Shown: positions 6,019-24,464 of the stretch, piece after piece | Position numbering within the stretch: the first letter of the stretch is position 1 | How the letters are laid out: every line of letters starts with the position of its first letter | From: Antricoccus suffuscus | GTDB taxonomy: Bacteria > Actinomycetota > Actinomycetes > Mycobacteriales > Antricoccaceae | Assembly: GCF_003003235.1 (NCBI RefSeq) | Contig: NZ_PVUE01000023.1 | Coordinates: 1-56,697, forward strand | Direction of reading: 5' to 3' | DNA length: 56,697 nt | Notes under the pieces: generated by a model | What the model saw: only the letters and a program-made list of their open reading frames with translations | What the model was told of the DNA's origin: nothing | Database searches by the model: none | Translations under genes and position numbers: made by a program

Positions 6019-7515
6019 ATGGCCCTGTACAGTATGGTCTCCAGCTGGGCCCGTAGCGCGAGGGAAACACCGGACGCACCGGCAATCACCGTCGGCGACG
6101 AACCCTCGATCAGCTGGACCGAGTTGCATCGCACGTCCAACCAGTTCGCCCGCGTCTACGCCGAAAAGGGCGTCCGCTACGGCGATATCGTCACCGTCTC
6201 CCTGCCCACGTCGTACGAGGCAGTGTGCGCGATCCTCGCGATCGTGAAGCTCGGTGCGACCCCCAACCCCATCTCAGCGAACATGCCCGAGAATGAGTTG
6301 CGGCCCCTCCTGGAGCTCGCGAAACCGCGACTCGTCATCGCCGAGGACGGTGCCTACCCGGACGACATTCCGACCGTGGGCCTGCACGTCGACCTGACCG
6401 GCGTTTCCACTGACGATCTTCGCGAAGTCATCTCGCCGTCGTTCAAGGCCCCCACGTCCGGCGGGAGCACCGGCCGGCCCAAACTGATCATGGCCGGTTC
6501 CCCGGCGTTGATGGACGACGGAGCGGAGACGCCGGGGCACAAGCTCGGTATCCCGACGGACGGGTGCATGCTGTCGGCCGGCCCGCTGTACCACAACACC
6601 GCCCTGACGCTCATCCTGACCGGGTTGAGCCTGCGCAACCACGTCGTCCTCGAGCGGCGGTTCGATGCCGAACTCACCCTGCGCCTGATCGAGCGCCACC
6701 GGGTCGAGTTCACGCTTCTGGTTCCCACGATGATGAGCCGAATCTGGCGGCTGCCCGCGGAAGTCCGCAACAAATACGACCTATCGAGCCTTGTTGGGCT
6801 CCATCACAACGCGGCGCCGATGCCGCCGGAGCTGAAGCGCAACTTCATCGAATGGCTCGGCCCGGACCGGGTGTACGAGAACTACACCGCCACGGAGCAG
6901 TCAGCCCAGACTCTGGTCTCCGGTCAGGAATGGCTCGAACGTCCCGGCACCGTCGGACGCGCGACGATCGGCGAGTTCGAGATCCGTGACGATGAGGGAA
7001 AGAAGTGTCCACCGGGACAGGTCGGCACCATCTACATGCGCCGGCCCGTGGGCGCACCCCGAACCTTCTTCTATATCGGCGAACCCGACCCCGAGGTCGG
7101 GGGCGGCTGGCACAGCGTCGGCGACCTCGGGTCCATGGACGAGGACGGCTATCTGTACCTCGCCGACCGGCGCGCCGACCTCATCATCTCCGGCGGCGCG
7201 AACGTGTACCCGGCGGAGGTCGAGGGTGTCCTCAGCGCCCACTCCGAAGTTTTGGACTGCGCTGTGGTCGGCCTCCGCGACGACGACCTCGGCCAGCGGG
7301 TGTACGCGATCGTGCAACCCGCAACGCCGGACCTCACCGCTGAAGACCTTGACGCGTTTATGCGCGAACGCCTCAACCGGTACAAGTGCCCCCGCGACTA
7401 CGAGTTCGTCGACCAGCCCATCCGTAACGACGCCGGAAAAGTCCGCCGCAGTGCCCTCGCCGCGGCCCGGGACGGCGGCGACCGCAATCAAGCCACCTCA
7501 GGAGTAAAACGATGA
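6019..7515 (+). CDS. acyl-CoA ligase (AMP-forming)
   Basis: A 498-residue adenylate-forming enzyme that would activate a carboxylic acid with ATP and join it to CoA. The core motifs are present: SGGSTGRPKLI for phosphate binding, YENYTATEQ in the adenylate region, GDLGSMDEDGYLYLADRRAD with its hinge, the IISGGANVYPAEVE block, and the C-terminal lysine in NDAGKVRRSAL. The ATG at 6019 is chosen because GGAGG lies 9 bases upstream; a longer in-frame start at 5965 would overlap the previous gene. Being between the hydratases and the lactonase, it probably performs the entry step of the pathway. Confidence 0.92.
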   Translation: MALYSMVSSWARSARETPDAPAITVGDEPSISWTELHRTSNQFARVYAEKGVRYGDIVTVSLPTSYEAVCAILAIVKLGATPNPISANMPENELRPLLELAKPRLVIAEDGAYPDDIPTVGLHVDLTGVSTDDLREVISPSFKAPTSGGSTGRPKLIMAGSPALMDDGAETPGHKLGIPTDGCMLSAGPLYHNTALTLILTGLSLRNHVVLERRFDAELTLRLIERHRVEFTLLVPTMMSRIWRLPAEVRNKYDLSSLVGLHHNAAPMPPELKRNFIEWLGPDRVYENYTATEQSAQTLVSGQEWLERPGTVGRATIGEFEIRDDEGKKCPPGQVGTIYMRRPVGAPRTFFYIGEPDPEVGGGWHSVGDLGSMDEDGYLYLADRRADLIISGGANVYPAEVEGVLSAHSEVLDCAVVGLRDDDLGQRVYAIVQPATPDLTAEDLDAFMRERLNRYKCPRDYEFVDQPIRNDAGKVRRSALAAARDGGDRNQATSGVKR

Positions 7516-8399
7516 CCCAACCCATGAAGACCCTCGTCGGTGGATTCGCCTTTCTGGAGTGTCCGCGATGGCACGACGGCAAGCTGTGGATGGTCGATAT
7601 GCATCGCGACCTTGTCGTCGTGGTGAGCGAGGACGGCTCTACCGAGGAGATCACAGTACCCGGGCGGCCCGGCGGCATGGGCTGGTTCCAGGACGGGTCC
7701 CTCGCAGTAGCGGCCACCCAAAACCGCAAGATCATGAGGTACCACGACGGGGAACTGTCCACCTACTGCGACATGAGCGACATCGGTGACTCCGAGCACG
7801 AAATCAACGACCTCGTCATGGACGCTAACGACCGCTGCTATGTCGGTGAATTCGGAGTGGACGTCCATGCTTGGATGGCTGAAAACGTCCCGAAGGTGGA
7901 AGAGCACGGAATCGCCATCCTCGCCGAGGCCCCCCTCGACGAAGCGGACGTGTTCCTCGTCGAGAACGGCCAGGCAACGGTTGCCGCCAGTGGATTGCGC
8001 TTCCCGAACGGGGCCGCCATCAGCGTCGACCAGACGAGGTATGTGGTCGCCGAGACGTTCGGCCTGCGGTTGTCGGAGTACAAGCTGATCGACGGAGTAC
8101 TCAGCGACCGCCGCATCATCGATCTCGGCTTCGGTCCCGACGGAATCTCACGGATGGATGAACAGGGCGGGATCTGGCTCTCGGACCCTATGGGTTCCAA
8201 GGTGCACCGCGTGGATGCCACCGGCGCTATCACCGACACCGTCGAGTGCGACCTGCCCGCGTACGCCTGCGAAATCGGCGGGAGCGACGGCCACACTCTG
8301 TTCGTCTGCCTCGCGTCCAGCGCCGACCCCAACCTCACCGTCAACACGCGGGACGCACGTATCGACACCGTTCAGATCGGCATTCCGGCAGCGCATTGA
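7512..8399 (+). CDS. SMP-30/gluconolactonase-family protein
   Basis: A 295-residue protein resembling the SMP-30/gluconolactonase six-bladed beta-propeller family. Typical marks are the opening FLECPRWHDGKLWMVDM with its metal-ligand glutamate, the NDLVMDANDRCYVGEFG block, and the GLRFPNGAAISVDQ and GPDGISRMDEQGGIWLSD repeats. Members hydrolyse lactones using one divalent metal. ATGA overlap with the ligase gene indicates co-translation. In this operon it could open a lactone substrate or intermediate, but the real substrate is not deducible. Confidence 0.85.
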   Translation: MTQPMKTLVGGFAFLECPRWHDGKLWMVDMHRDLVVVVSEDGSTEEITVPGRPGGMGWFQDGSLAVAATQNRKIMRYHDGELSTYCDMSDIGDSEHEINDLVMDANDRCYVGEFGVDVHAWMAENVPKVEEHGIAILAEAPLDEADVFLVENGQATVAASGLRFPNGAAISVDQTRYVVAETFGLRLSEYKLIDGVLSDRRIIDLGFGPDGISRMDEQGGIWLSDPMGSKVHRVDATGAITDTVECDLPAYACEIGGSDGHTLFVCLASSADPNLTVNTRDARIDTVQIGIPAAH

Positions 8400-15937: not shown

Positions 15938-16960
15938 TCACCTACGGCACTCATGCGTATCGGTCTGCTTCTCGTACGGAGAAATCGTCAGGGAACATTT
16001 CCCGCAGACATCGCTACGCCTCTGGTTGGGGCACTCACATTGCCTACATGACGGGCATTTGGGTTCCCCGCACACGTCGCAGAGTATCGGTTCGCGATCC
16101 AGCGCGTATTCGTCGCGTTCGCAGCCAGGGTTGCCACAGAGGTACGTCGCTGCCTCAAGTTTCCCGTAGCCGAATCTGGCAACTGGCGTGAGTGCGATGA
16201 ACACGCAGCGCCCTGTGCTATCCAGCGCGGCGTGCGCGTACATATCTTGGAGTCTTAGATTCTTGTCGTAGTGCACTCCTTCGGTGAAGCGTCGCCGAAC
16301 GAGTCCGGTCCGCGCTTCTTCCGCTAACGCGGCAAATCCTGGCTGCGCTCTCCCCCGCGCCGGCGGATAGTTCTCGCCGTACGTCGCGCGTGAGTGCATT
16401 ACTGTGCCATCGAGTCCAGAGACAGCAAGTATCCACTTACTGCGGTGCTCCATGATTGTCGCGATGTGTTGTAGAACGGCTGACGGGGAGGCGGCTGACC
16501 TCTCGTGTAGGTCGGCCATCACGGCCGCGGGAGAGACGTCGACGTTGGTCTCGTCCGCGGGTTGGAGGTCCGTGAGGAGTATCCGTGCGGCGATTGCGTT
16601 GCAGACATTCTCCTCCATTTTGCGACGGGCGTCTTTACTCAGGTCGAGCAAGACGTAACCCCACTCGGGATGCGTCTGCTGCATGTGGTGTGCAAGCTCG
16701 TGCAGGATCGTAAAGTTGTCTCGCCGGTTCCCTGCAGGGTGGATGTAGATGATCCCCAGGTCACCGTCGTAGTAGCCGCCACCGCACGAAGCTGCTGGGA
16801 GACGTTCCCTCTCGACGACAGTAATTTCAGCGATTGCATTTACGCCGGCCCGGGGATCCGTCTGCAGTACTCCGAGATCAAGGTAGGGGCATGTCTCGAT
16901 CAGTGCGCGCGCTACTTCTGTAACCGGCCCTCCTGCCGCGAGCCGGGCCCAGTCAGGCAT
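15938..16960 (-). CDS. ImmA/IrrE-family metallopeptidase with C-terminal cysteine-rich domain
   Basis: A 340-residue protein with the zinc-peptidase motif HELAHH at residues 87-92, preceded by IIYIHPAGNRRDNFTIL, as in ImmA/IrrE (COG2856) enzymes that cleave repressors or antitoxins. The C-terminal 70 residues carry several CxxC pairs (CDVCGEPKCPSC and others), probably zinc ribbons, which is unusual for the family. I prefer the ATG at 16960, which overlaps the upstream stop by 8 bases. A longer frame from 17032 would overlap by 80. The upstream HTH protein is the obvious partner or target. Confidence 0.85.
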   Translation of the reverse strand: MPDWARLAAGGPVTEVARALIETCPYLDLGVLQTDPRAGVNAIAEITVVERERLPAASCGGGYYDGDLGIIYIHPAGNRRDNFTILHELAHHMQQTHPEWGYVLLDLSKDARRKMEENVCNAIAARILLTDLQPADETNVDVSPAAVMADLHERSAASPSAVLQHIATIMEHRSKWILAVSGLDGTVMHSRATYGENYPPARGRAQPGFAALAEEARTGLVRRRFTEGVHYDKNLRLQDMYAHAALDSTGRCVFIALTPVARFGYGKLEAATYLCGNPGCERDEYALDREPILCDVCGEPKCPSCRQCECPNQRRSDVCGKCSLTISPYEKQTDTHECRR

Positions 16961-17846
16961 CACTCTGTCCAGAGTCTTGAAGACGCGCGATCGCGTCCCG
17001 TAACTTTTCGGGACGTCGGGATCGACTGTCATCTCGCGCAGCTAGTCTTAGTGCCTCGCGGGATACCCTTACCCGAGTTGTGCCCTCTCGTTCGCGCCTC
17101 TTCCTGCCGAGATCTACGACATCTGATTTGAATACAGGCCGCGCCAATTCAGACAAATATTCAGAGGCGGGGTCCACGCCGGTCAGGTCAACTTCGGGAA
17201 CGCCGACGGCTCTGGCCAACCGGGAGAGGTCTGGTGCACTAATAGGCTTCGTACCCGACCAGATATTTCGCGTTGCAACAACGTCCAGTCCAAGCGCGCG
17301 GCCCACAGTCTGCGCATCGATTCCGGCGGCGCGGATCTTGTTCTCGTCTAGCACGACCTCCCCGGTGTCCGACCGCGGATCGTTGAAGCACAGTTCGGCC
17401 CAGTGCTCGGTCATAGTGCGATCAGAAGCGCTGTTCGCCTCGTCTGACGAACTGCCGCGAGCGAACGGAAGGCCGGGGAGTTCGCCGGCGTCCGTTGCCG
17501 CAGCCACTTGAAGAACCTGGCGTTCGCTAAGAAGATTGCCGAGACACCGATCCAACAAGTGCTTTCCGAGGCCGGTTTCGCGACTCGGCCACAGGACCAC
17601 GGGGACGGCAAGCGGCGTAACGCGCACGACAAGGCCTGGGGCGTACGAGGGCTCCTCCGCCAGAGTTACCGGCCAGCCGATGATGTAGTCGGACTTGTTC
17701 GCTGCCACCATGACGTGGCCACACGGCGAGCCGTCCCACGAAAGAACCCAGAGGTCACCTCGTCTGATGTCCGTCTCTCCCGTGCCTCGACGCCATAAAG
17801 CCGCAGCGTCGACGCGAAGAGAATGTGGCGGTTCGATGGTCGTCAC
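16953..17846 (-). CDS. HTH-containing partner of the ImmA/IrrE peptidase
   Basis: A 297-residue protein translated just before, and overlapping, the metallopeptidase gene. The GTG start follows an AGAGGAG box by about 5 bases. Residues near 170-225 look like an XRE-type helix-turn-helix (AAGIDAQTVGRALGLDVVAT, then SRLARAVGVPEVDL). The N-terminal 100 residues (RRGDLWVLSWDG and VRVTPLAVPVVLWPSRETG) have a beta-rich pattern faintly like MazF/PemK folds, but this is a weak impression. By analogy with COG2856 pairs it may be a regulator or antitoxin cleaved by the peptidase. No confident family is assigned. Confidence 0.7.
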   Translation of the reverse strand: MTTIEPPHSLRVDAAALWRRGTGETDIRRGDLWVLSWDGSPCGHVMVAANKSDYIIGWPVTLAEEPSYAPGLVVRVTPLAVPVVLWPSRETGLGKHLLDRCLGNLLSERQVLQVAAATDAGELPGLPFARGSSSDEANSASDRTMTEHWAELCFNDPRSDTGEVVLDENKIRAAGIDAQTVGRALGLDVVATRNIWSGTKPISAPDLSRLARAVGVPEVDLTGVDPASEYLSELARPVFKSDVVDLGRKRREREGTTRVRVSREALRLAARDDSRSRRPEKLRDAIARLQDSGQSDA

Positions 17847-19590: not shown

Positions 19591-20034
19591 CTACTCTGCC
19601 GGCCACGGATGCAGGCTGTCGAGCCTCAGGATCGCGAACTTACCGCTGACCGGATCGATAGCGGCATCGGACTGCTCATGACTACCGCCGGCGTGCGCGA
19701 TCGCGGCCAAGACAAGATCCAGCGTCCCGCGATCAAGACCGGATACCTCATCGAGGCGTACCGGCACACCGCCGGCCAGACTTGCCACGATCCGAAGGAC
19801 CCGCTGCTCTCCCCCGGACAGGCCCCCGATGGTCTGGTCAGTGATTGCACCGACGTCCAGCACGTACCGGTCACCGCCGCGCCGTTGGTGTGCCTCGGTA
19901 ACCCACGGTTGGCCGGGATCTGCGTAACGACCGCCGGCGGCCCGGATCACCAACTCGACCGCGGCCTCGAGTGCGTAGCTTCCGCTCCCCCATGCGCGTA
20001 ACGATTCCGCGGTCTCACTTGTGGCTGCGCCCAT
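19591..20034 (-). CDS. hypothetical protein co-transcribed with the resolvase
   Basis: A 147-residue protein of unknown function that ends 3 bases before the resolvase start. The ATG at 20034 is preferred because AGAGGA lies 8 bases upstream; the frame stays open to 20133 but has no other good ribosome-binding site. Its middle (ITDQTIGGLSGGEQRVLRIV) superficially resembles an ABC signature, but there is no Walker A or B, so an ATPase call is not justified. The coupled position suggests an accessory or regulator of the recombinase. Confidence 0.65.
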   Translation of the reverse strand: MGAATSETAESLRAWGSGSYALEAAVELVIRAAGGRYADPGQPWVTEAHQRRGGDRYVLDVGAITDQTIGGLSGGEQRVLRIVASLAGGVPVRLDEVSGLDRGTLDLVLAAIAHAGGSHEQSDAAIDPVSGKFAILRLDSLHPWPAE

Positions 20035-20482
20035 GCGCCCGATCCTCTCGTGATAGGAATCATCTCGAACTAACCGTACCGGATAAGACCCCTTCATCGG
20101 GATTAATTGCGGTACGGGTTTTCGGTACTGCACGGTCAGCGGTAAATGGCGGGTCCAACTCTGGCTGGATCCGCTGAATGGCAGTGGTTGTGCGGCGCTA
20201 TTGGACCGATCCAGTCATAAGTCCCACATCGGGCGTGAAGGTGTACCGGTCAGGGATCCCTTTACGGACGGTCGACCGGGTATTCGACTGGGCAAACTTC
20301 CCGCCCCGACAGCTACAGTCGCGACCGACTGGATGCGATGATTCTGGGATGCTAGGGCCAATTGCGCGCAGCGCCTCATCGAACAGCCAACGCACACCCA
20401 GTTGGGTGGAAGTGGATTTGGAGGTCAAGGCCAACGAAAGGCTTCGGCTGCCCAGTCGGCCTTCTGCCCGCCGGGGGTCGCT
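20035..20482. other. intergenic region with GGTAC boxes, candidate res site
   Basis: This 448-base gap upstream of the recombinase unit contains GTACC at 20076-20080 and GGTAC at 20111-20115 and 20124-20128. The first two form the inverted pair ACCGTACC (20073-20080) and GGTACGG (20111-20117). Resolvase sites usually lie just upstream of the recombinase operon and contain such inverted subsites, so this is a candidate res or regulatory region. From about 20180 to 20482 nothing more can be supported. Confidence 0.35.
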
Positions 20483-21499
20483 GTGAGGTTCAGACGTCGC
20501 AACTCCGAGGCACTAGCCGATCTGATCTGCGGCAATCATGATCCAACAGCTGAGGCTGAGCCGAGTTACTTTCCATACCGCTCGAGCAGTTACATCACTG
20601 AATTCTTCCAGGAGCTTGACACCGACTGGGCGCACGACGGCTCGACACGACACCGCTGGGTCGCCGATGTTCTCGAAAGCATGCTGAACGAACCTCATGA
20701 CGGACCGAGCCACCCTCCTGAGGGATTCTGTCGCCTCATCGATCAGCTGATGAGCCCCAGTGACGCTATGAACGAAGGACCGAATCGATCGAACGCGCTC
20801 CGGCACCTCAACGAGGTGTTGGCAAGAGAAGGCTTCGAAGCCTTCTACGGCGACGACCGGCACTGCTATCTGCGCCATATCGGCACGAACACGGTCACGG
20901 TCCTGCAACCCAACCCGCACCGACCACTTACTACTGTCGAGGTACAGCGACGTAACGATCTCGCCGGCTTCCTCGACAAGTGCAGCGAGGACGAACTCAT
21001 CGAAGAGGTGCTCCTCCCGCTGTTCCGCCAGCTGGGGTTTCACCGAATCACTGCGGCCGGACACAAGGACAAGGCCTTGGAGTACGGCAAAGACATCTGG
21101 ATGCGCTACATGCTGCCAACCCAACACCTCCTGTACTTCGGCATCCAGGCCAAGAAGGGGAAGCTCGACGCTTCCGGCGTCACCAAAGCCGGTAACGCCA
21201 ATATGGCCGAGATTTACAATCAAGCGCTCATGATGCTGGCACACGAAATCTTCGACCCTGAGATAAACCGTCGTGTTCTGGTCGACCACGCCTTCATCGT
21301 GGCGGGAGGAGAAATCACTAAAGCCGCGCGGAATTGGCTCGGAAATGCTCTCGATGACGCAAAACGCAGCCAGATCATGTTCATCGATCGAGACGACATC
21401 CTGAACCTGTACGTCGTCACGAACCTGCCGCTGCCAGTCAGCGCATTGCCGAAGCTAACTGACCCTTGGGTTACCTCAATCAACGAGCCGCCCTTCTAA
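20483..21499 (+). CDS. Mrr-like restriction-endonuclease-fold protein
   Basis: A 338-residue protein in two parts. Residues 1-130 contain FPYRSSSYITEFFQELDTDW and HDGSTRHRWVADVLES, a pattern I associate with N-terminal modules of abortive-infection (AbiJ-like) proteins. The C-terminal half (EEVLLPLFRQLGFHRI, GKDIWM, YFGIQAKKGKLD) reads as a PD-(D/E)XK fold with D and QxK, as in Mrr-type nucleases. The GTG at 20483 follows a GGGGG run and begins the conserved part. It probably acts as a defence nuclease, possibly with the following gene. The family name is uncertain; the nuclease fold is moderately well supported. Confidence 0.7.
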   Translation: MRFRRRNSEALADLICGNHDPTAEAEPSYFPYRSSSYITEFFQELDTDWAHDGSTRHRWVADVLESMLNEPHDGPSHPPEGFCRLIDQLMSPSDAMNEGPNRSNALRHLNEVLAREGFEAFYGDDRHCYLRHIGTNTVTVLQPNPHRPLTTVEVQRRNDLAGFLDKCSEDELIEEVLLPLFRQLGFHRITAAGHKDKALEYGKDIWMRYMLPTQHLLYFGIQAKKGKLDASGVTKAGNANMAEIYNQALMMLAHEIFDPEINRRVLVDHAFIVAGGEITKAARNWLGNALDDAKRSQIMFIDRDDILNLYVVTNLPLPVSALPKLTDPWVTSINEPPF

Positions 21500-21666
21500 G
21501 ATGGCGAGGCGCTCCCTGGCCCGGGCGGTCCACCTGGCGTAGACCGGGGCGGTGCCAAGTTCAAGCAGGACGACTCGGGTCCGGATCCGTGCATTGTTGC
21601 GGAGGGTTCCGGTTCGATAACCTGATGAGTACTGCGTGTGCCAGCCTCAACAAGGGGGATAAGTCT

Positions 21667-22224
21667 GTGAAGTTCACCGATGTCCGCGACATCATCCAGA
21701 GCAGCCGACCGAGCGATTGGAACTACGTTCCTTGCTGGGGCTCAGACTCCGGGCCCTCATACCGCACGAAATGGGAAAAGATGACAGGGCCCAACTCGAC
21801 ATGGGAACTGCATCACCAGGAACACGACCATATCGCCGCATACAAACCGGACGTCGGAGTGACACTTGCCTGGGGTATGCCGATGTACGCCGACAACCAC
21901 CCAGAAATGACGCCTGACTGGATTGACAAGTTCCCCCTTGTGGACTCCGTTAGTTACTATTTCATCGACGTATTCTGGAACGGCTCTGTGATCGATCGCG
22001 ACCTCTACACGGTCATGGACAGCCGCACATATCTACCGCTCCCGAACCCTATCTACAACGAGACAGCGGTCGGGAGTACGGCCGCACGGGAGCGGTATGA
22101 GGTCACGCACTATCAGGTGGCACTCGCACGGCTCGTGAACAATCTTGCGAACCACCAGGACACCGATTTTGACCAAGCTCTCAATCGGACAGGATTTGCC
22201 TTGGTTGACAACATCTCTGAATAA
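21667..22224 (+). CDS. hypothetical protein downstream of the Mrr-like nuclease
   Basis: A 185-residue soluble protein of unknown function. The GTG at 21667 is chosen because AAGGGGGA sits 8 bases upstream. It is rich in aromatic and acidic residues (SVSYYFIDVFWNGSVIDRDL) and carries the His-rich ELHHQEHDHIAAY, which could bind metal, though no family is recognised. It lies 167 bases after the nuclease on the same strand and may form a two-gene unit with it. Confidence 0.6.
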   Translation: MKFTDVRDIIQSSRPSDWNYVPCWGSDSGPSYRTKWEKMTGPNSTWELHHQEHDHIAAYKPDVGVTLAWGMPMYADNHPEMTPDWIDKFPLVDSVSYYFIDVFWNGSVIDRDLYTVMDSRTYLPLPNPIYNETAVGSTAARERYEVTHYQVALARLVNNLANHQDTDFDQALNRTGFALVDNISE

Positions 22225-24065: not shown

Positions 24066-24464
24066 TTAGGACTGTGGGGCCGGTTCGCTGGTCTCGTTGT
24101 CGCTTCTGCGTTCGGCCTTGTGCACGGCCGCGGTGGCGTACTTGAGGCTGGCAGCGACGTTGTACGCGGTGATGGTGTTCCGGCTACGCTGCTGGCCGGT
24201 GGTCTTGTCTTCCCATGTGTGGGTGCGGATCACGCCGGTGACGATGACCGCGTTGCCTTTGCTGAGACTGGTCGCGATGTTCTCGCCAAGGGTTTTCCAA
24301 GCCTCGATGTCGTGGTAGGTCGCGGGTGCATCGACCCACTCCCCTGCCTTCTTCTCGCGGTTGTTGACCGCGACGGCGAACGTGGCGAGGGCGTGCCCGT
24401 TCGGCGTGAATTTCAGCTCGGGGTCTGCGACGAGGTTGCCTTCGACGGTCAGTGTGGTGCTCAT
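24066..24464 (-). CDS. ssb: single-stranded DNA-binding protein
   Basis: A 132-residue SSB with one OB-fold. It shows LTVEGNLVADPELKFTPNG, the aromatic and basic strand ATYHDIEAWKTLGENIA, SLSKGNAVIVTGVIRTHTWE and the adjacent GQQRSRNTITAYNVAASL. The acidic C-terminal tip of chromosomal SSBs (DDDIPF) is replaced by ETSEPAPQS, typical of plasmid versions with altered partner binding. AGGGAG lies 6 bases before the ATG. It would coat transferred or replicating single strands. A long structured leader separates it from the next gene upstream. Confidence 0.95.
   Translation of the reverse strand: MSTTLTVEGNLVADPELKFTPNGHALATFAVAVNNREKKAGEWVDAPATYHDIEAWKTLGENIATSLSKGNAVIVTGVIRTHTWEDKTTGQQRSRNTITAYNVAASLKYATAAVHKAERRSDNETSEPAPQS

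What the first reader, a model, noticed from the sequence alone, without database searches (positions are those of the whole stretch)
20483..22224. Mrr-like nuclease with an abortive-infection-like N-terminus and an unknown partner
The nuclease half keeps D and QxK positions of the PD-(D/E)XK fold, while the N-terminal half resembles modules of Abi-type proteins. The next gene has a His-rich segment and no known family. The pair lies in a mosaic region between a recombinase and the plasmid backbone, a typical place for cargo defence genes.
Basis: partly seen in the sequence, partly recalled or inferred. Interest (0 to 1): 0.52.

Follow-up and report, generated by a model that had tools for sequence, protein, structure and literature searches.

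The report
Stand-alone nuclease with SSB-like tail

Summary
The ORF at 20483-21499 is real and founds a conserved, unnamed family (225 relatives in one genome scan; also on plasmids and in prophages). The domain reading holds in part: the C-terminal half models as a PD-(D/E)XK nuclease (AspBHI Z 9.9) with conserved D204 and Q222-x-K224; the N-terminal half resembles AbiJ_NTD3 below cut-off, and in one relative heads a different effector. The two-gene idea fails: the downstream gene has no relative at E<=1e-3 in any of 93 family loci. This is the SSB C-terminal tip. Its variable residue equals the host SSB's in 29 of 40 genomes, mostly an actinomycete-versus-rest difference with about two independent switches. 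Best reading: an Abi-type nuclease effector that docks by SSB-tip mimicry on SSB-interacting host proteins. Cleavage, docking and defence are inferred. The domain architecture has precedent (PMC3710099); my searches showed no report of an SSB-tip-bearing defence nuclease.

The parts
20483..21499 (+). gene 1: 338-aa nuclease with AbiJ-NTD-like N-terminus and SSB-like C-terminal tip
20483..20908 (+). N-terminal domain, residues 1-142 (five helices and a beta hairpin), AbiJ_NTD3-like
   Evidence: AF2 model of this part alone pLDDT 91.9, pTM 0.87; Pfam AbiJ_NTD3 14 of 67 members, below cut-off; hhalign P 0.00097, probability 22%, 43 columns; fused to another effector in L185
20930..21436 (+). PD-(D/E)XK nuclease domain, residues about 150-318
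   Evidence: AF2 model; AspBHI Z 9.9, MspJI Z 9.4; MspJI the only Foldseek match at E<=0.001
21092..21094 (+). codon of predicted catalytic D204
   Evidence: D in 67 of 67
21146..21154 (+). codons of Q222-x-K224, predicted catalytic QxK
   Evidence: Q in 66 of 67, K in 67 of 67
21437..21481 (+). variable linker, residues 319-333
   Evidence: right-justified tails: no position over 40% identity before the last five; low pLDDT at the end
21482..21496 (+). SSB-like C-terminal tip NEPPF; the best-scoring SSB of the same genome ends DEPPF
21667..22224 (+). gene 2: 185-aa protein of a separate small family; neighbour, not a conserved partner

Best explanation
Gene 1 encodes a stand-alone, mobile effector: an AbiJ-NTD-like regulatory/sensing domain, a PD-(D/E)XK (Mrr/MspJI-like) DNase, and a flexible tail ending in a copy of the SSB C-terminal tip. 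The tip docks on the SSB-binding pockets of host genome-maintenance proteins (PriA, RecG, RecO; also RecQ, exonuclease I or the polymerase chi subunit, the last three named from general knowledge). That holds the nuclease where single-stranded DNA is handled, such as the forks and recombination intermediates of a replicating phage or plasmid. When the N-terminal domain is triggered, the nuclease cuts there and ends the infection or kills the cell. Shown here: the architecture, the conserved candidate active-site residues, the tip and its partial agreement with host SSB, the stand-alone mobile distribution. Inferred: DNA cleavage, docking on SSB-interacting proteins, the trigger, and defence as the purpose.
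For: Tip: 84 of 93 members end in PF (82 of 91 after collapsing rows with the same first 120 residues). Over 108 tails F is 93%, P 90%, acidic residues 83% and 71% at the two positions before the variable one, and no position before the last five exceeds 40% identity. Background: 1 of 1164 other mechanically called ORFs on the window and the same loci ends in PF, and it is an SSB. The residue before PF equals that of the host SSB in 29 of 40 genomes, shuffled mean 12.5, 0 of 20,000 as high; within the 23 hosts whose SSB is not PPF-type 15 match, shuffled mean 11.3, 609 of 20,000 as high. Among 82 rows with a PF tip and a known phylum, PPF is seen in 0 of 41 non-actinomycete and 32 of 41 actinomycete rows. 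SSB biology: losing the terminal Phe or changing the Pro abolishes or weakens binding of partner proteins, and 11-20 residues are named as the minimal linker (PMC10164576, passages); the linker here has a median of 15 by a rough measure. Nuclease fold and residues. Modular N-terminus: and PMC3710099 passages. Company: QatD, reverse-transcriptase systems, type I restriction subunits and a TIR protein are among PADLOC matches of 132 nearest neighbours (25 of 214 families shown, no control set). Mobile cargo.
Against: No experiment. Host tracking is mostly the actinomycete-versus-rest difference and rests on about two independent host switches, so shared descent may explain it; 11 of 40 rows do not match and 9 of 41 actinomycete rows carry another residue. 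Nine of 93 members lack PF; at least L039 and L082 are not obviously broken. The structural match is moderate: TM-scores under 0.3, and unrelated models often reach a best Z of 7 to 8 (note). The window protein matches no Mrr_cat and AbiJ_NTD3 only below cut-off. PADLOC gives the family only weak matches, the best Stk2 in 4 of 67 members at E 0.00095, so defence is by analogy and context.
Confidence: 0.5

Rival explanations
1. Decoy/guard: the SSB tip is bait for phage proteins, or senses competition for SSB-binding pockets; losing or gaining a tip contact triggers the nuclease rather than steering it.
For: Several defence systems are listed as responding to phage SSB (Nhi, Hachiman, Eco8, Septu; PMC12904381 passages). 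The tip resembles host SSB.
Against: No direct evidence; the AbiJ-type N-terminal domain already offers a sensor.
Confidence: 0.2
2. The gene serves the mobile element, not phage defence: it uses the SSB interactome to help plasmid or prophage establishment, or to cut competing plasmids.
For: 46 plasmid records and 15 viral/prophage contigs.
Against: Some copies lie on contigs over 1 Mb (L028, L049, L068, L070, L083 of 80) and some beside defence-like genes. In E. coli 191 of 193 places are on chromosomes, though the one opened is a prophage.
Confidence: 0.17
3. Autoinhibition: the tip binds a pocket in the protein itself and is displaced by free SSB tips or partner proteins.
For: SSB's own tip can bind its OB domain (PMC10164576 passages).
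Against: Would not by itself explain agreement with the host SSB, though that agreement is weak phylogenetically.
Confidence: 0.08
4. Ordinary Mrr/MspJI-like type IV restriction enzyme; the tail is a minor feature.
For: Best structural neighbours are the modification-dependent restriction enzymes AspBHI and MspJI.
Against: Pfam shows no base-reading domain in the window protein; tip conservation far above its linker.
Confidence: 0.05

Closest known systems
AbiJ-NTD fused to Mrr-type or DUF2726 restriction-endonuclease domains (Burroughs et al. 2013, PMC3710099, passages)
   Same: Abi-type N-terminal domain followed by a restriction-endonuclease-fold effector; such N-terminal domains are swapped between effectors (TIR, deoxyribosyltransferase, kinase, HEPN)
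   Different: the word SSB occurs 0 times in the held main text; here the C-terminus carries an SSB-like tip; Pfam matches are below cut-off
Mrr / MspJI / AspBHI restriction enzymes
   Same: PD-(D/E)XK fold and a D...QxK-type set of conserved residues (that MspJI and Mrr use QxK is recalled)
   Different: no modification-reading domain found; different N-terminus; SSB-like tail
SSB C-terminal tip (SSB-Ct; DDDIPF in E. coli, PMC11981726 passages)
   Same: variable linker plus acidic-x-P-F-COOH, partly matching the host's SSB
   Different: attached to a nuclease, no OB fold
Defence systems listed as sensing phage SSB (Nhi, Hachiman, retron Eco8, Septu)
   Same: connection between ssDNA-binding biology and a nuclease
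   Different: these detect phage SSB; the passages read describe no defence protein bearing an SSB tip
NucS/EndoMS
   Same: PD-(D/E)XK fold (5gkj Z 7.5); recalled: tethered to the sliding clamp by a C-terminal motif
   Different: tail here is SSB-like, not clamp-like; alignment covers the nuclease part only

Membership tests
PD-(D/E)XK nuclease superfamily | restriction-endonuclease fold core | tested here: met
   model residues 149-322 to AspBHI 4oc8_A Z 9.9, rmsd 4.0, 139 aligned; MspJI 4f0q_D Z 9.4, rmsd 3.7, 137 aligned; 8 of 985 aligned chains at Z 8 or more. Foldseek: one match at E<=0.001, MspJI, TM-score 0.28 by query length
PD-(D/E)XK nuclease superfamily | conserved acidic plus (D/E/Q)xK residues | tested here: met
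   D204 67/67, Q222 66/67, K224 67/67; their placing in the active site was not measured on the model
PD-(D/E)XK nuclease superfamily | DNA cleavage | not testable with these tools
   needs purified protein
Mrr_cat (PF04471) | profile score over the Pfam cut-off | tested here: not met
   window protein: no match at E<=10. 9 of 67 members match at E<=1, best 0.01 (their bit scores are not shown). hhalign against 17 Mrr_cat sequences: probability 8%, P 0.0045
AbiJ_NTD3 (PF18860) | profile score over the Pfam cut-off | tested here: not met
   window 11.6 bits against cut-off 32.5; 14 of 67 members at E<=1, best E 0.0037; collinear hhalign match P 0.00097 over 43 columns
AbiJ (HEPN effector) | C-terminal HEPN domain | tested here: not met
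   the C-terminal half models as a PD-(D/E)XK fold
SSB | OB-fold ssDNA-binding domain (PF00436) | tested here: not met
   no SSB match in gene 1; PF00436 in the window's genome gave four places, none of them gene 1
SSB-Ct-type tip | C-terminal acidic-x-P-F at the end of a variable linker | tested here: met
   84 of 93 end in PF; 100 F and 97 P of 108; background 1 of 1164
SSB-Ct-type tip | binds SSB-interacting proteins | not testable with these tools
   needs binding assay
Shedu (SduA) | match to a known defence model | tested here: inconclusive
   no Shedu model among PADLOC hits at E<=1 for 67 members; presence of that model in the library was not checked
Two-gene defence system with gene 2 | conserved adjacency | tested here: not met
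   0 of 93 loci with a gene-2 relative at E<=1e-3 (loci reach at most about 8 kb either side, several less)

The most novel reading that the evidence does not exclude
A widespread, unnamed single-gene immune effector that mimics the host SSB tail, so that a defence nuclease is delivered to (or kept in check by) the host's own replication-repair hub, with the tip re-tuned after transfer between phyla to fit the new host's SSB code.
Probability: 0.35. Interest if true: 0.78.

Novelty: new variant of a known kind. Interest (0 to 1): 0.6.

Why it matters
If true, it gives a concrete answer to how a small, unguided nuclease chooses where to cut: by borrowing the docking tag of SSB. It would be a case of immune mimicry of the SSB interactome. 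It is directly testable, because a natural E. coli version ending in NDDIPF exists and the effects of single changes in the SSB tip are known. It would also give a function to a protein family that was annotated as hypothetical protein, or not at all, in the 40 plasmid records listed, and that matches in 191 of 5426 complete E. coli genomes.

Tried and rejected
Partner gene: tblastn of gene 2 against 93 family loci gave nothing better than E 0.02. Relatives of gene 2 sit in changing company (beside a TIGR02391 protein in L211; beside what I read by eye as caspase-like and SLOG-like proteins in L218). Gene 2 itself has only weak matches (DUF1801 E 0.13, PADLOC PDC-S04 E 0.0045) and none in solved structures or viral contigs. 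Recurrent neighbours of gene 1: the largest cluster spans 6 of 94 loci.

Solved structures by sequence: none for the window protein or for profile A3 at E<=10. PHROGs, NCBIfam, PADLOC: none for the window's gene 1. Phage genomes: no match for either half. The N-terminal domain alone had no Foldseek match at E<=0.001 and no VIA Z over 3.2; that does not show a new fold. A tree test of host tracking found only 1-2 independent pairs, too few for a claim; within non-PPF hosts agreement is modest. A first version of that tree script failed through my own pattern for cutting tails and is not used (second half; its tail statistics are used). The linker figure has a spurious maximum (322); I quote the median. 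The neighbour scan has no control set and gives families, not a count of defence neighbours. Papers opened whose passages I did not use: PMC10853773, PMC3874153.

In print? Ten paper searches were made; those on this question are. In the rows listed (large result sets were cut to 5-25 rows) I saw no report of an SSB-tip-bearing defence nuclease. The library lacks most subscription papers.

Full report
What is there. Gene 1 (20483-21499, +) starts at a GTG that lines up with the start of its relatives and differs from near relatives mostly by synonymous codons. Gene 2 (21667-22224, +) follows after 167 bases. Neither reaches a curated cut-off in Pfam or NCBIfam.

How widespread. A protein search found 46 plasmid records, 36 with at least 80% of the query in one place; the 40 listed are from Actinomycetota and Alpha- and Gammaproteobacteria and are annotated as hypothetical protein or not at all. 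A scan of genome contigs with profile A3 gave 225 relatives, of which the best 80 were returned; by their titles these come from Actinomycetota, Pseudomonadota, Bacteroidota, Cyanobacteriota, Acidobacteriota, Bipolaricaulota, Eremiobacterota and Thermodesulfobacteriota. It is sporadic: 1 of 5 genomes of the window's family, the window's own; 1 of 396 drawn from its phylum, again its own; and 6 of 398 around a Collimonas genome, counting that genome itself, one with a stop inside, and one that matches by the N-terminal domain only. In E. coli 191 of 5426 complete genomes match the plasmid-borne version at DNA level, 191 places on chromosomes and 2 on plasmids. The one chromosomal locus I opened lies in a prophage with dicB, ydfD, hokD and rem, i.e. 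Qin (the name is recalled), and its protein ends NDDIPF.

N-terminal domain. AlphaFold2 of residues 1-142 is confident (pLDDT 91.9, pTM 0.87). Pfam AbiJ_NTD3 is the commonest match in the family (14 of 67, best E 0.0037), below cut-off for the window protein. A profile comparison with seven AbiJ_NTD3 sequences recovered from eight loci aligns in the same place (43 columns, P 0.00097, probability 22%). Burroughs et al. (PMC3710099, passages) describe this kind of swapping: AbiJ-NTDs fused to HEPN, Mrr-type and other restriction-fold nucleases, TIR, deoxyribosyltransferases and kinases. So the domain grammar is known.

Nuclease domain. The full model has pLDDT 85.8 and pTM 0.57, so the placing of the two domains is unsure. 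Against solved structures the nuclease part matches AspBHI (Z 9.9, rmsd 4.0, 139 aligned), MspJI (Z 9.4), LlaBIII (8.5), EcoT38I (8.2) and FokI (8.2); Foldseek gave one match at E<=0.001, MspJI. The tool warns that a best Z of 7 to 8 is common by arrangement alone, so the match is good but not overwhelming; the conserved D204 (67 of 67), Q222 (66 of 67) and K224 (67 of 67) support it. Mrr_cat is matched weakly by 9 of 67.

The tail. After the conserved core comes a linker of median 15 residues (rough measure), then an acidic-x-Pro-Phe end. Of 93 members 84 end in PF, or 82 of 91 after collapsing rows with the same first 120 residues. Counting the window and further viral and genome loci, 100 of 108 end in F and 97 have P before it, while no position before the last five exceeds 40% identity. 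Of 1164 other mechanically called ORFs of at least 100 aa on the window and the same loci, one ends in PF, and it is an SSB (L091). This is the signature of the SSB C-terminal tip, whose Phe and Pro are the residues that SSB-interacting proteins need (PMC10164576, passages).

Does the tip follow the host? In 42 genomes I read the best-scoring SSB. Two rows (L049, L082) were dropped for lack of PF. In the other 40 the residue before PF is the same in nuclease and SSB in 29 (shuffled mean 12.5, 0 of 20,000 as high): 14 of 17 hosts with a PPF-type SSB and 15 of 23 others. Inside the 23 others the agreement is modest (shuffled mean 11.3, 609 of 20,000 as high), with telling single cases such as DEVPF with EEVPF in the Bipolaricaulota bin and NDLPF with DNLPF in Mucilaginibacter. 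In the cyanobacterial bin neither the nuclease nor the SSB read ends in PF. On the tree the actinomycete label changes only twice, so the pattern is consistent with, not proof of, adaptation.

Surroundings. In the window the nearest genes have no strong PADLOC hit; the protease-like gene at 15938-17032, 3.5 kb away, matches CapP. Elsewhere the nearest neighbours include QatD-like TatD proteins (4-base overlap with the nuclease gene in L015 and, by similarity, L016), reverse-transcriptase systems, type I restriction subunits and a TIR protein. By eye, L003 has an Eco57I-like enzyme next door and L004 a reverse transcriptase. No neighbour cluster spans more than 6 loci, and no neighbour resembles gene 2 at E<=1e-3. 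The unit is therefore best read as a single gene.

Mechanism and novelty. The simplest account of all parts is a single-chain effector: N-terminal sensor, DNase, and an SSB-type docking tag that places it on the host's ssDNA-handling enzymes. Several systems are listed as detecting phage SSB (PMC12904381, passages); one that wears the SSB tag itself did not appear in the searches named under Tried and rejected. I file it as a new variant of the AbiJ-NTD plus restriction-fold nuclease kind; the tip is the new part.

Noticed in passing
window 24066-24464 (-): The contig carries its own SSB (PF00436), whose C-terminus (EPAPQS) lacks the PF tip, while the nuclease about 2.6 kb away has it.
   Followed up: partly
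window 15938-17846 (-): Two overlapping genes; the downstream one (15938-17032) matches the PADLOC CapP model at E 2.5e-8 (M78/IrrE-like, below Pfam cut-off), its neighbour has no family.
   Followed up: no
L185 967-1854 (-): Same N-terminal domain fused to what looks like a TIR/deoxyribosyltransferase-like domain, no SSB-like tip.
   Followed up: partly
L015 and L016, about 7144-8004: A QatD/TatD-like gene overlaps the start of the nuclease gene by four bases in two actinomycetes (the L016 assignment is by 72% identity to L015).
   Followed up: partly
   Followed up: no
window 21667-22224 and L209-L218: Gene 2 belongs to a small family with shared GP[ST], aWG and DGGR-P patterns (by eye), in some loci beside immune-like genes.
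   Followed up: partly
window 19591-20133 (-): 180-aa ORF upstream of gene 1 with no family; only a weak PADLOC mad3 match, E 0.047.
   Followed up: no
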